From positions 1 through 24,637 of IMG/VR virus record IMGVR_UViG_3300021088_000031: a stretch of DNA of 24,637 nt, one strand, 5' to 3'. Positions 2,864 to 15,262 of the stretch are shown here, piece by piece. Position numbers and translations under genes: made by a program. Positions within the stretch are counted from its first letter, which is position 1. Each line of letters opens with the position of its first letter. This DNA comes from a virus. The notes beneath the pieces were generated by a model that worked only from the letters and a program-made list of their open reading frames with translations, was not told the origin of the DNA and did not search any database.

Positions 2864-3181
2864 TTAATATTCTATAAAACCTTGTTTGGTCGAATTTATT
2901 AAGTTGATATATTCCGACTTTCGCAACGGCCTGAAATCATCGTCGTTAAAATATTTTACTATGGCTTCTTTTGAGCCGTCTCCTACCTTCATAAACATTC
3001 CATCAGTTAACATACTTATAAGCCCGTATGATTTATCACCGCCAACATTAAACCCAACCTTAAACGACACCGTACAAGCAAAAGATAAATCAGTAGTCCC
3101 TAAAGATGACGAGTTTTTTATTACATAAAGTCCGCATTCTATGTCCTTGACATCCCATTTTGCGGTAAGTGTTAATTTCAT
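2864..3181 (-). CDS. Hypothetical phage protein, 105 aa
   Basis: Beta-rich N-terminal two thirds with many Gly and Ser (GLYVIKNSSSLGTTDLSF) and an acidic and basic C-terminal part. No signal peptide and no recognised domain. The ATG is one base from the stop of the gene at 3183. A plus-strand frame at 2886-3128 is a shadow. Confidence 0.65.
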   Translation of the reverse strand: MKLTLTAKWDVKDIECGLYVIKNSSSLGTTDLSFACTVSFKVGFNVGGDKSYGLISMLTDGMFMKVGDGSKEAIVKYFNDDDFRPLRKSEYINLINSTKQGFIEY

Positions 3182-6211: not shown

Positions 6212-6943
6212 TTAAAGTGCTTTTATTTGGTTAATTAAATCGGTTAAAGTCTTATTTTGATATTCCATATACTCGTAATCGGCACATTGCTTGTCGGTGC
6301 TTAAAATGCCATCGATAGTGCCCTGTATCACCTCTATCACCCTCTCTTTGCTGACAGTGTTTTGCTTTTGCCAAAAATCTACCCCGTTGCGGGTATTCCA
6401 TTTACCTTGAACCTTATCTTTCCTATCATCCGTAATTATAAGGGAACAATCAGTGCAAGTAATACGATAGTAAGGATGTTTGTACCCTAAAATTACACTT
6501 TCACCTTCCTTTCCTCCGCACAATGGACAGGGGTCTATCCCATTTGCAACACCCATTGATACAGGAATATAATCAGTTTCTTCAGTTTCCTCCGGCTTTT
6601 CTGCCTTTGGTGTTATTATGTAAATCTTTCTGACTTTATGAATGGGTTGGTTTAATTCTGAATGGTTTTCGTAGTGGTAGTTATATTGATGTTCTGTTAT
6701 TTCTTCCCACCCATTTGTAAAGGTACTTTGTTGCCAAACTATCCTCCCCTCCAAAATCTCTCCTTCCACCCCATGGTAAGGCGAATGATCGGGGTTGATT
6801 AAGGGCAGTTCAGGATGGGCTGAATTAAATCGCCCACAATCGGGATTGCCGGGAGCCGGATAATTCGAATATGGCGGTCTTATAAATTCCCAATGCGGAT
6901 TTACGGCTATACCGAATCCAGGCTTTGTTGGTTTTATTTGCAT
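6212..6943 (-). CDS. Protein with C-terminal Lar-type zinc ribbon, 243 aa
   Basis: The C-terminal part carries a zinc-ribbon signature, CPLC (Cys 139/142) and CTDC (Cys 163/166), followed by W-N-T-R at ~182. This spacing is that of Lar-type restriction-alleviation proteins, in which CPxCGG...C..C precedes a W..R motif. Lar modulates host type I restriction; whether this protein does so is inference, because similar ribbons occur in many phage proteins of unknown role. The N-terminal ~130 residues are Pro/Asn/His-rich and unrecognised, making the protein much longer than classical Lar (~60 aa). The start overlaps the preceding gene by 10 bp. Confidence 0.75.
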   Translation of the reverse strand: MQIKPTKPGFGIAVNPHWEFIRPPYSNYPAPGNPDCGRFNSAHPELPLINPDHSPYHGVEGEILEGRIVWQQSTFTNGWEEITEHQYNYHYENHSELNQPIHKVRKIYIITPKAEKPEETEETDYIPVSMGVANGIDPCPLCGGKEGESVILGYKHPYYRITCTDCSLIITDDRKDKVQGKWNTRNGVDFWQKQNTVSKERVIEVIQGTIDGILSTDKQCADYEYMEYQNKTLTDLINQIKAL

Positions 6944-12429: not shown

Positions 12430-12687
12430 TTATGATTTTACATTTACAGTATCAGCCGAGTTTACAACCGGATTAGCGGCCTGTGAGGCGATTGTATCAT
12501 CTTTTTTGGCGCTACCCGATGAACTGCCAAACCAGTACCCGAGAACGGTACCTAAAGCCCCTACATTGGCAATAGTAATTTGCGGATCAGGTTTAACGCC
12601 GGCAATAAGGCAAAAAAAGAAGTACACGAATACAAAGGATAAAACCACTATTGATAATATGCCCTTAATGTTTTTGTTTAAATCCAT
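12430..12687 (-). CDS. Holin-like membrane protein, 85 aa
   Basis: Two hydrophobic segments are present: residues ~9-29 (GILSIVVLSFVFVYFFFCLI) and ~38-52 (ITIANVGALGTVLGYWFGSS). They are followed by a Ser/Gly/Lys turn and a polar tail. The LGYWFGSSSGSAKK stretch resembles the end of phage holins of the three-helix type, where a YFGSS-like motif is common. Holins make the membrane lesion that releases a cytoplasmic endolysin, and the lysozyme at 14804 lacks its own signal, so a holin is expected nearby. The neighbours are the lipoprotein and the secreted nuclease. Confidence 0.65.
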   Translation of the reverse strand: MDLNKNIKGILSIVVLSFVFVYFFFCLIAGVKPDPQITIANVGALGTVLGYWFGSSSGSAKKDDTIASQAANPVVNSADTVNVKS

Positions 12688-12689
12688 TG

Positions 12690-13256
12690 TTAATTTACTT
12701 TGTAATAAGTGAAAGGATGTTTTGAAACTGTATCATTATTGGGGACAATGTATTTTTCAAAATGTCCCGAATACCTCAACTCTTTAATTGTATAGGTAGG
12801 TATCACAACGTTATCCGGTTTTAGATATCCGGACACGCCGTTCCAATAAACCTTAACATTAACAGGTTGATTTAATTTACGTGTGTAGGCCTCAAGTTGT
12901 AACCAAACCAACCTATTATTATTGGGTCGTTGTGGGAAAGTGTTTGCAAAGTCGAACGAATTATACTCATCAGTTTTATTGCCGTTCTCGTCGCTGGCAT
13001 CGCAATTATGTCCAATATCAAATCCGCTTTTTGCATAATCCTTTGACAGGTTAACGCGGCCACCAGTGGCATGAAATCCCGCTTCGCGACCAACCGCCTT
13101 AACATGTGGTGCCGCTGTCCATATAACGCTATCAGGTATTAATGTTTTTGCGTTCCAATAATCAGTATATCCGGGATAAACGATTTTAACGGTTTGGGCA
13201 AGTGCCGGGCTGCAGCCATATGCCAGCATACATAAAAGATAAAAAACTTTTTTCAT
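12690..13256 (-). CDS. Secreted DNA/RNA non-specific endonuclease, 188 aa
   Basis: A Sec signal peptide (MKKVFYLLCMLAYGCSPALAQ) precedes a beta-beta-alpha-metal nuclease. GFDIGHNCDASD corresponds to the DRGH motif (catalytic His 83, Arg replaced by Ile), and FANTFPQRPNNNRLVWLQLE gives the Mg-binding Asn (~114) and Glu 122 with the 8-residue spacing of Serratia nuclease (Asn119, Glu127). The enzyme should cut DNA and RNA in the periplasm or outside. Within a lysis block it could clear host nucleic acid after lysis or act against competing DNA; the role is inferred. It sits 2 bp from the holin-like gene. Confidence 0.9.
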   Translation of the reverse strand: MKKVFYLLCMLAYGCSPALAQTVKIVYPGYTDYWNAKTLIPDSVIWTAAPHVKAVGREAGFHATGGRVNLSKDYAKSGFDIGHNCDASDENGNKTDEYNSFDFANTFPQRPNNNRLVWLQLEAYTRKLNQPVNVKVYWNGVSGYLKPDNVVIPTYTIKELRYSGHFEKYIVPNNDTVSKHPFTYYKVN

Positions 13257-13260
13257 GTGA

Positions 13261-13524
13261 TTATTTTTTAAGGGTGTCTATTTGTTGTTTTACGCGGCTG
13301 TTGATCCGGTTTAAATCAATAGCCCATAATGTTTTTTGAGCATCGTTGGCGCCGTGTGTGGCCTCGTAAACTATTTGGTTAATTCGACGGTAGTCTGATA
13401 GCTTTACTACTATTACGGTGTCTGAAACGCGCCTGCTGTCAATAAGAGCGGCACCCGCAATATTAATAGTCATAAATAAAACGACTAATGAAATAAGGCC
13501 AATTGTGGTAAGTGTTTTTTTCAT
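13261..13524 (-). CDS. Small membrane-anchored or exported protein, 87 aa
   Basis: A hydrophobic N-terminal segment (residues ~6-27, TTIGLISLVVLFMTINIAGA) acts as a signal anchor or signal peptide. It is followed by a helical, charged periplasmic part ending QQIDTLKK. Such a layout would fit an inner-membrane spanin component, but there is no firm signature. It is spaced 2-4 bp from its neighbours, so it is co-transcribed. Confidence 0.65.
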   Translation of the reverse strand: MKKTLTTIGLISLVVLFMTINIAGAALIDSRRVSDTVIVVKLSDYRRINQIVYEATHGANDAQKTLWAIDLNRINSRVKQQIDTLKK

Positions 13525-13526
13525 GG

Positions 13527-13850
13527 TTAATTTAGTTTGATGTGATATTTTGTTTCAAGATATTTTTTACGGTTAAGCATTATTTGTTTTTCGATTATGG
13601 CATTTTCTACCTGTATGACACTATCTATTTTGTGTTGATAGAAAGTTTCAAACCTTTGATATTTTAAAGCCTCCTTATCATCCTGTGCTGTCGCCTTATC
13701 ATAAAAATACTGGCTTATTTCTTGATATTTAGCAACGCTATCAGCCCAATTTTCGCCATACCAAAAACCGTAGTTAGTAATGCCTTTTTGAGCCTTAACG
13801 GTAAAGGCAATTAAGTAAAATAACGAAAGTAAAACAAGCTTAATTTTCAT
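13527..13850 (-). CDS. Exported helical protein, 107 aa
   Basis: Sec signal peptide MKIKLVLLSLFYLIAFTVKAQ, then a mature part with an aromatic start (GITNYGFWYGENWADSV) and long charged helices, probably coiled-coil, to the end. No family is recognised. It is the first gene of the lysis/export operon (13850 down to 12244), with promoter elements at 13865-13900. Confidence 0.7.
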   Translation of the reverse strand: MKIKLVLLSLFYLIAFTVKAQKGITNYGFWYGENWADSVAKYQEISQYFYDKATAQDDKEALKYQRFETFYQHKIDSVIQVENAIIEKQIMLNRKKYLETKYHIKLN

Positions 13851-13941: not shown

Positions 13942-13949
13942 TACTTTTG
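13942..13949 (+). promoter_or_regulatory. -7 element upstream of the Thg1-like gene
   Basis: TACTTTTG fits TAnnTTTG about 36 bp upstream of the ATG at 13985. No TTTG lies at the ideal 19-bp distance. The leader holds a small AGCG/CGCT hairpin (13963-13978). Confidence 0.5.
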
Positions 13950-13984
13950 TGTGCCGTAATTCAGCGGTGTAAAACGCTAAGAAA

Positions 13985-14719
13985 ATGAATACAGAACCAA
14001 TTGGCGACCGTATGAAGCGGTTGTATGAAAACGTTACACGCTATCAATTACAAGGCAGAACATATACTATTATACGTATAGATGGTAAAGCCTTTCACAC
14101 CTACACAAAGGGCTTAAAGAGGCCTTTTGATGAACAATTGATATTAGATATGGATGAAACGGCTTGTTATCTATGTAAAGAGATACAAGGGGCTAAATTT
14201 GCCTTTGTTCAATCAGATGAAATATCAATATTACTTACTGATTTTGATAGCTTAACATCACAAGCATGGTTTGACGGAAATATTCAAAAACAAGCCTCAA
14301 TAAGTGCGAGTTTAGCAACTGCAATGTTTAATCAACTACGTCCAGGAAAATTAGCTCATTTTGATGCAAGGGTTTTTCAAATAAGCGATAAAACAGAAGT
14401 TGAAAATTATTTTATTTGGAGACAGCAAGATTGCACACGAAATTCTATTTCATCCGTTGCTCAATCTATGTATTCGGCAAAACAATTGCATGGTAAATCA
14501 ACGGATAACATGCAGGAAATGATATTTCAAAAAGGTATTAATTGGAATGATTACGATCTTAAATTAAAAAGAGGCAGATTAATAACTAAATATCATTATG
14601 AAAAAAATGGGGCTATTCGTTCTAATTGGAAATCAATCGGGTGCCCTATATTCACACAAGAAAGAAATTTTATCAGTTTAATAATACCTGATAGAAATGG
14701 AATTAACCAATTAGGTTGA
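13985..14719 (+). CDS. Thg1-like protein (3'-5' tRNA nucleotidyltransferase), 244 aa
   Basis: Thg1-family enzymes add nucleotides to the 5' end of tRNAs in the 3'-5' direction; eukaryotic Thg1 adds G-1 to tRNA-His, while bacterial and archaeal Thg1-like proteins (TLPs) repair truncated 5' ends on a template. The signatures are clear: RIDGKAFHTYTKGLKRPFD (metal ligand Asp 33), FVQSDEISILL (Asp 78/Glu 79), HFDARVF at ~125, and NYFIWRQQDCTRNSIS at ~141-156. RNS rather than the eukaryotic HINNLYNT after WRQxDC points to the TLP type. The length is normal for the family and no key residue is missing. It lies opposite to its neighbours with its own -7 box and terminator, the arrangement of a phage moron gene. 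A role in repairing tRNAs damaged during infection is inference. Confidence 0.93.
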   Translation: MNTEPIGDRMKRLYENVTRYQLQGRTYTIIRIDGKAFHTYTKGLKRPFDEQLILDMDETACYLCKEIQGAKFAFVQSDEISILLTDFDSLTSQAWFDGNIQKQASISASLATAMFNQLRPGKLAHFDARVFQISDKTEVENYFIWRQQDCTRNSISSVAQSMYSAKQLHGKSTDNMQEMIFQKGINWNDYDLKLKRGRLITKYHYEKNGAIRSNWKSIGCPIFTQERNFISLIIPDRNGINQLG

Positions 14720-14745
14720 TTAGCGTTATCCTATTTTGGTTAACT

Positions 14746-14767
14746 AAGCCCCTTACAAAGGGGGCTT
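14746..14767 (+). terminator. Rho-independent terminator of the Thg1-like gene
   Basis: AAGCCCC (14746-14752) pairs with GGGGCTT (14761-14767) over an 8-nt loop, followed by ATTGTTT. It faces the end of the minus-strand lysozyme gene. Confidence 0.75.
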
Positions 14768-14803
14768 ATTGTTTAAAAAAAGTGGTAAAATTAAAAAGCC
14801 ACT

Positions 14804-15262
14804 TTACGACATATAAACTTCATATTCTTTTGTCCTGCGTTCAACAAGGTCTTCCAAAGGCTTACCGCCGGCTTTTGACCACATTAGAAACGCTGCTTTT
14901 AATTCCGGCCCTGATACATTAGAATTTACAAGGCGATGAACTGTAGAGCCTTTAAATCCACCCGTACCAATGTTATAAGTAAGGCTTACTAAAGCATTGT
15001 ATTGGTTTTGTGTTAAATCGGGGCGAGTTGTGGAAGATACGGCCAGTTCAAAAGGCTTAACAAGTTGCAAAAACATGCTATCGGCTTGCGCTTGCGATAT
15101 TGGCGGGTCACTCATGGTAACTTTCTTTCCAGTCCCAGGATAATAGGTCATTCCTGTGCCAATAGTGGGGATACCTACCTGATCCAGGTACGGGTGTAAA
15201 ACGCATCCTTCAAATTGCGCTATAAGCCTTATTCCGGCCTCGTCTAATTGTGTAATTTGCAT
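14804..15262 (-). CDS. Phage lysozyme (GH24 endolysin), 152 aa
   Basis: This enzyme hydrolyses the glycan strands of peptidoglycan to release phage. FEG (catalytic Glu 18), PYLDQVGIPTIGTG with Asp 27 and Thr 33 gives the E-8aa-D-5aa-T triad of T4-type lysozymes. The later motifs QNQYNALVSLTYNIGTGGF and a final RRTKEYEVY match the family, and the length is normal. There is no signal peptide or SAR anchor, so export should depend on a holin. It has its own terminator upstream (15311-15344) that separates it from the gene at 15372. Confidence 0.93.
   Translation of the reverse strand: MQITQLDEAGIRLIAQFEGCVLHPYLDQVGIPTIGTGMTYYPGTGKKVTMSDPPISQAQADSMFLQLVKPFELAVSSTTRPDLTQNQYNALVSLTYNIGTGGFKGSTVHRLVNSNVSGPELKAAFLMWSKAGGKPLEDLVERRTKEYEVYMS

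What the first reader, a model, noticed from the sequence alone, without database searches (positions are those of the whole stretch)
13985..14719. Phage-borne Thg1-like 3'-5' RNA polymerase as a self-contained moron
All catalytic motifs of the Thg1/TLP family are present in a gene inside a phage lysis/export block, on the opposite strand, with its own -7 box and terminator. TLPs repair 5'-truncated tRNAs in vitro. A phage copy next to lysis and nuclease genes suggests protection or editing of tRNAs during infection, for example against host tRNA-cleaving defences, or use of another RNA as substrate. The function in this setting is inference.
Basis: partly seen in the sequence, partly recalled or inferred. 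Interest (0 to 1): 0.72.

Follow-up and report, generated by a model that had tools for sequence, protein, structure and literature searches.

The report
Phage-carried Thg1-like RNA repair gene
A small phage of a Bacteroidota-type bacterium carries an intact gene for an enzyme that adds nucleotides backwards onto the 5' end of RNA; hundreds of phages carry the same gene, often beside RNA-ligase genes, so it is most likely an accessory tool for repairing RNA (probably tRNA) damaged during infection.

Summary
ORF 13985-14719(+) encodes a 244-aa Thg1-like protein (TLP) with invariant catalytic residues. Its closest solved relative is the bacterial TLP BtTLP (4kgk; E 1.8e-66), and its AlphaFold model matches that fold. 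It is the bacterial 5'-end-repair type, not eukaryotic tRNAHis-type Thg1. It is not a rarity: 127 GenBank phage records and at least 102 IMG/VR contigs carry relatives, PHROG 4717 exists, and an RNA-repair/counter-defence role was proposed for a phage copy in 2010.

New evidence here. (1) It behaves as a moron: the nearest relative (82%) sits in a phage whose tail proteins are only 28-31% identical, at another place, and two lysozyme-sharing phages lack it. (2) 34 of 50 Thg1-phage records encode an RNA ligase, 15 within 2 kb of Thg1 (2.4 expected); Bacteroidota chromosomal TLPs lie in RNA-repair clusters. (3) tRNAs of Thg1 phages mostly encode G-1 on tRNAHis and show no marked 5'-mismatch excess, arguing against G-1 addition or 5' editing.

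Best reading: a mobile 5'-end RNA-repair enzyme, most likely acting on host tRNAs. No ligase or tRNA was found in this 24.6-kb fragment, so partner and substrate remain inference.

The parts
13985..14719 (+). Thg1-like protein (TLP), 244 aa, predicted 3'-5' nucleotidyltransferase/polymerase
   Evidence: Pfam PF04446 E 2.3e-25; PHROG 4717 E 1.3e-86; PDB 4kgk E 1.8e-66; conserved D33, D78, E79; AF2/Foldseek match to BtTLP
13942..13949 (+). Possible Bacteroidota -7 promoter box TACTTTTG upstream of the TLP gene
   Evidence: Matches TANNTTTG, in place for a short 5' UTR, but the motif is at chance frequency in the window
13951..13984 (+). Short 5' leader with the 16-bp stretch TGCCGTAATTCAGCGG and a weak hairpin, shared with the nearest relative L003
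   Evidence: 16/16 identical between window and L003 although the gene is 78% identical in DNA; hairpin z -0.7 and -2.4; the 15-mer is otherwise at chance level in viral contigs
14745..14768 (+). Intrinsic terminator-like hairpin after the TLP gene, between convergent TLP and endolysin genes
   Evidence: 10-bp stem then TTGTTT
14804..15262 (-). Endolysin (phage lysozyme), convergent neighbour
   Evidence: PF00959 E 3.6e-33, phrog_7 E 3.2e-44
12690..13850 (-). Three small secreted-type ORFs (13527-13850, 13261-13524, 12690-13256), the last an Endonuclease_NS nuclease with a signal-peptide-like start; with the TLP they fill the gap between endolysin and holin-like gene
   Evidence: in L272 endolysin and holin-like gene are directly adjacent
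12430..12687 (-). Small membrane protein, holin-like (inference)
   Evidence: 47% identical over its C-terminal part to the gene directly behind the L272 endolysin; alignment score 78 versus shuffled maximum 40

Best explanation
The gene encodes a functional Thg1-like protein of the bacterial 5'-end-repair type (BtTLP-like), carried as a mobile accessory gene (moron) in the lysis region of a probably temperate Bacteroidota phage. Shown here: the family, the intact active site, the fold, the mobility between unrelated phages, and a family-wide linkage to RNA ligases and kinases. Inferred: the enzyme activates the 5'-phosphate of a 5'-damaged RNA with ATP or GTP and adds the missing nucleotides backwards, using the 3' acceptor strand as template. 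The most likely substrate is host tRNA shortened during infection, so that translation of phage proteins continues. Where a ligase or kinase is present it would be one arm of an RNA-repair kit; in this small phage it stands alone or relies on host or unseen phage partners. That the damage comes from a host anti-phage nuclease is the least certain step.
For: Family and active site. TLP rather than Thg1-proper: best match is BtTLP, shown in vitro to prefer 5'-truncated tRNAs of several kinds (PMC3701042), and the eukaryotic HINNLYN segment is replaced by TRNSISS (alignments). Mobility: Thg1 82% identical in L003 while shared tail proteins are 28-31% identical and the gene sits elsewhere in the tail module; L270 and L272, which share the endolysin (76%, 67%), lack Thg1, and L272 has endolysin and holin-like genes adjacent. 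RNA-repair context: 34/50 Thg1-phage records carry PF09414 RNA ligase, 15 of those 34 within 2 kb of Thg1 versus 2.4 expected, 0/20000 random placements; RNA_ligase is the commonest Pfam family among 131 immediate neighbours (6) versus 1 among 131 distant genes; Bacteroidota chromosomal TLPs lie beside RNA ligase, Macro, KptA and kinase genes; isolated phages phiA009 (RNA ligase) and Kalah2 (polynucleotide kinase) repeat the linkage; L270 has an RNA ligase two genes from its endolysin. The two main alternatives, tRNAHis G-1 addition and 5' editing of phage tRNAs, are not favoured by the tRNA survey.
Against: No RNA ligase, kinase or tRNA gene was found in the 24.6-kb window or, for tRNA and ligase, in the five closest relatives, so the repair-kit inference comes from more distant members. 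All these records are linear fragments. The ligase linkage is partly shared ancestry: most of the 15 cases fall in one clade. Anticodon nucleases, the best known tRNA-cutting defences, make breaks that Thg1 alone cannot mend. The conserved leaders hint that other RNA targets are possible.
Confidence: 0.58

Rival explanations
1. It is a true tRNAHis guanylyltransferase, as databases call it, adding the G-1 identity nucleotide to a tRNAHis.
For: Database names. One phage tRNAHis in a Thg1 record lacks an encoded G-1 (L139, U-1 with C73), and in L024 a tRNAHis gene lies directly behind Thg1.
Against: Of about ten tRNAHis genes with C73 in Thg1-phage contigs, all but one have G at -1 in the DNA (one after correcting ARAGORN's offset). 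This phage fragment has no tRNA, and bacteria encode G-1 (general knowledge). The HINNLYN segment is absent.
Confidence: 0.1
2. It edits the 5' ends of the phage's own tRNAs, as in Dictyostelium mitochondria, replacing encoded mismatches in the acceptor stem.
For: Many Thg1 phages encode tRNAs (33 of 50 records); some tRNAs have 1:72 mismatches (24 of 486).
Against: 1:72 mismatches are largely initiator Met and Gln; 2:71 (1.4%) and 3:70 (2.1%) are no higher than 5:68 (3.1%) and 6:67 (2.7%). Small relatives of this phage have no tRNA.
Confidence: 0.06
3. It acts on another RNA: 5' activation (capping-like) of phage or host transcripts, or binding of its own mRNA leader for feedback control.
For: TLPs add nucleotides to several 5'-monophosphate RNAs. 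A clade of phage Thg1 genes has a conserved leader that precedes Thg1 in 17 of 23 pattern hits, and the window leader has 16 bp identical to L003.
Against: No covariation in the leader and a weak hairpin in the window; the element may be DNA. Nothing ties the catalysis to mRNA.
Confidence: 0.14
4. It is a neutral passenger picked up by recombination with no present function in this phage.
For: Patchy distribution and no visible partners in the window.
Against: Reading frame and catalytic residues are intact at 82% and lower identity to relatives, which implies selection; own terminator.
Confidence: 0.1

Closest known systems
BtTLP, Bacillus thuringiensis Thg1-like protein (PDB 4kgk/4kgm, PMC3701042)
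   Same: Same fold and family: phmmer E 1.8e-66, about 45% identity in the structural alignment, same metal-binding Asp residues, no HINNLYN segment
   Different: Bacterial gene, biochemically tested; this one is phage-borne in a lysis region and untested; BtTLP's K43 aligns with R46 here
Phage tRNA-His guanylyltransferase family, PHROG 4717 (e.g. Bacillus phage BSP38, Staphylococcus phage PMBT8, Xanthomonas phage XacN1)
   Same: Best profile match E 1.3e-86; 48-54% identity to Bacillus, Staphylococcus and Xanthomonas phage members
   Different: Listed isolates are mostly large phages (about 88-500 kb), several with tRNA genes; this gene is in a 24.6-kb fragment with an integrase piece and no tRNA
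Bacteroidota chromosomal RNA-repair cluster with TLP (Xanthocytophaga flavus L192; L190, L191)
   Same: TLP 68-70% identical; same tree neighbourhood
   Different: There TLP is beside RNA ligases (PF09414, PF09511), Macro and KptA; here it stands alone among secreted proteins and endolysin
T4 Pnkp/Rnl1 tRNA-repair system
   Same: Proposed purpose: mending tRNA during infection
   Different: Different enzymes and chemistry (kinase/phosphatase and ligase at anticodon breaks); no such genes seen in this window

Membership tests
Thg1/TLP family (PF04446) | Significant match to the Thg1 palm domain over the curated cut-off | tested here: met
   E 2.3e-25, 89.5 bits versus cut-off 29.2
Thg1/TLP family (PF04446) | Two metal-binding carboxylates and surrounding motifs | tested here: met
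   D33 and D78 align with D30 and D75 of BtTLP and are invariant in 20 relatives
Thg1/TLP family (PF04446) | Thg1 fold | tested here: met
   AF2 pLDDT 88.9; Foldseek top hits 4kgm/4kgk E 3.9e-23, then all other Thg1/TLP structures
Thg1/TLP family (PF04446) | 3'-5' nucleotide addition activity | not testable with these tools
   Needs purified protein
Eukaryotic-type Thg1 (tRNAHis-specific) | HINNLYN segment | tested here: not met
   Aligned residues read TRNSISS; the C. albicans Thg1 has HiNNLYN there
Eukaryotic-type Thg1 (tRNAHis-specific) | A tRNAHis that lacks an encoded G-1 | tested here: not met
   Nearly all C73 tRNAHis genes of Thg1 phages encode G-1; no tRNA in the window
Phage RNA-repair module (ligase/kinase with Thg1) | RNA ligase or polynucleotide kinase near Thg1 | tested here: not met
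   None in the 24.6-kb window; met in 15 of 50 other Thg1-phage records within 2 kb. The phage genome is incomplete.
Moron | Patchy presence and transfer independent of the phage backbone | tested here: met
   82% identical in L003 with 28-31% identical tail proteins and different position; absent from L270 and L272 records
Moron | Own promoter and terminator, opposite strand | tested here: inconclusive
   Terminator and strand clear; -7 box at chance frequency overall

The most novel reading that the evidence does not exclude
Phage TLPs, including this stand-alone one in a small temperate phage, are a widespread mobile counter-defence that restores the 5' ends of host tRNAs cut by an acceptor-stem nuclease defence not yet described, with RNA ligase and kinase as optional partners; some are feedback-controlled through their own short leaders.
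Probability: 0.18. Interest if true: 0.75.

Novelty: new member of a known kind. Interest (0 to 1): 0.4.

Why it matters
The in vivo role of bacterial and phage Thg1-like proteins is an open question; they repair 5'-truncated tRNAs in vitro, but what truncates the tRNAs is unknown. Linkage of the gene to RNA ligases in phages, its movement as a single gene between unrelated phages, and the evidence against tRNAHis maturation make a concrete test possible: remove the gene from a phage and look at tRNA 5' ends in hosts with tRNA-cutting defences.

Tried and rejected
1) Phage tRNAHis lacking G-1 as the reason for the gene: rejected for most members. 2) Dictyostelium-type 5' editing of phage tRNAs: no excess of mismatches at 2:71 and 3:70 (no non-Thg1 phage control was run). 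3) The 16-bp leader element as a tRNA D-arm remnant or a widespread motif: the 15-mer occurs elsewhere in viral contigs only at chance-like places, and Rfam finds nothing (the only sub-threshold match is a chance miRNA family). 4) The conserved leader of another Thg1 clade as a structured RNA: strongly conserved and Thg1-specific (17 of 23 hits), but no covariation, so RNA or DNA cannot be told. 5) Finding the host or a complete relative: no DNA match in 50,697 phage records; the tail protein finds only the same contig again. 6) The neighbouring nuclease as part of the system: signal-peptide-like start, so rejected as a tRNA-related partner.

Full report
What is there. ORF 13985-14719 on the + strand encodes 244 aa. 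It matches Pfam Thg1 at E 2.3e-25, PHROG 4717 at E 1.3e-86, and the bacterial Thg1-like protein BtTLP (4kgk) at E 1.8e-66, far ahead of eukaryotic Thg1 (C. albicans E 2.6e-12, human E 4.1e-6). In an alignment with 19 relatives the RIDG and QSDE motifs are conserved, and D33 and D78, which align with the metal ligands D30 and D75 of BtTLP (PMC3701042), are invariant. The model is confident (pLDDT 88.9) and its nearest solved structures are BtTLP with ATP or GTP. The eukaryotic HINNLYN segment reads TRNSISS here. So this is a TLP of the 5'-end-repair type, with an intact active site.

Setting. The window is a 24,637-base linear virus record. It has an endolysin, an integrase C-terminal fragment, a Lar-like restriction-alleviation protein and a RadC-like protein. 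Thg1 lies between the convergent endolysin (14804-15262) and a divergent run of three small secreted-type ORFs ending in an Endonuclease_NS nuclease. A terminator hairpin follows the gene. A TANNTTTG box lies upstream, but this motif is at chance frequency in the window. There is no tRNA and no Rfam match.

Distribution and mobility. 127 GenBank phage records and at least 102 IMG/VR contigs encode relatives. The bacterial and archaeal genome collection gives 482 more candidates, of which 80 were kept. The nearest distinct relative, L003, is 82% identical in Thg1 but 28-31% in two shared tail proteins, and its Thg1 sits between the counterparts of window genes 24283 and 22453, next to a virion structural gene. 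Phages that share the endolysin (L270 76%, L272 67%) have no Thg1 in 94-kb and 44-kb records. In L272 the endolysin stop overlaps the start of the holin-like gene, whereas in the window 2.1 kb with Thg1 and the three secreted ORFs lies between them. L270 instead has an RNA ligase two genes from its endolysin. This is what a moron looks like. The tree joins window and L003 (98% SH-aLRT) inside a mostly viral clade of 70 rows, 58 of them viral; it is a quick search with weak deep branches.

RNA-repair context. In Bacteroidota chromosomes the closest cellular TLPs stand beside repair genes: RNA ligase in L190 and L191; two RNA ligases, a Macro domain and KptA in L192 (Xanthocytophaga flavus); an AAA_33 kinase in L195, with a similar P-loop protein next to Thg1 in L196. 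In phages, RNA_ligase is the commonest family among 131 immediate neighbours (6, versus 1 among 131 distant genes). Of 50 Thg1 records 34 have a PF09414 ligase, 15 of these within 2 kb of Thg1 against 2.4 expected (0 of 20,000 random placements reach this). Most of the 15 fall in one clade, so the permutation value overstates independence; by the tree about four phage lineages plus the Bacteroidota chromosomes show the linkage. Isolated phages repeat it: phiA009 with RNA ligase, Kalah2 with polynucleotide kinase. L007 also has a CCA-adding-type enzyme nearby.

tRNA tests. From Thg1-phage contigs 486 distinct tRNA genes were read. Nearly all genuine tRNAHis genes encode G-1 (one counted after correcting the program's offset); one has U-1. 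Mismatches at 1:72 (4.9%) are largely initiator and Gln tRNAs; 2:71 and 3:70 are not above internal positions. So neither tRNAHis maturation nor 5' editing explains the family. No Thg1-free phage set was measured as control.

Best explanation. An accessory 5'-end RNA-repair enzyme. The host tRNA substrate and the counter-defence purpose are inferences. The idea itself was published in 2010 for phage 201phi2-1 (PMC2904730), and Thg1 was listed with RNA repair in jumbo phages in 2021 (PMC7824862).

Limits. The phage genome is incomplete, so a partner may lie outside the fragment. The host is unknown; Bacteroidota is inferred from relatives and the promoter style. No activity was tested.

Noticed in passing
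L013:9958-9994, L064:9964-10000, L041:8539-8575 and 14 further loci: A clade of phage Thg1 genes has a nearly invariant leader (AACCAGCATCCAACTAACGAMGGTTGCACAATAACATATATT-ATG); in IMG/VR the core pattern precedes Thg1 in 17 of 23 hits. No covariation, no Rfam match; function unknown.
   Followed up: partly
window 13951-13968 and L003:9968-9983: 16 identical bases in the leader of window and L003 Thg1, with a weak hairpin, more conserved than the gene itself (78%).
   Followed up: partly
L024:10849-10925: A tRNA-His gene (with encoded G-1) lies directly behind Thg1 in a 299-kb phage record.
   Followed up: partly
L139:190-262: A tRNA-His gene with C73 but T at -1 in a Thg1-carrying 322-kb phage record, the one clear case that could need G-1 addition.
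   Followed up: no
L192:6413-15398: Xanthocytophaga flavus cluster of two RNA ligases, Macro domain, Thg1 and KptA, a rich bacterial RNA-repair locus.
   Followed up: partly
window 6212-6943: Lar-like restriction-alleviation domain, a possible anti-restriction gene in the same phage.
   Followed up: no
L270:10261-10575: Homologue of window ORF 2864-3181 at 98% identity in a phage record otherwise little related, a recent exchange.
   Followed up: no
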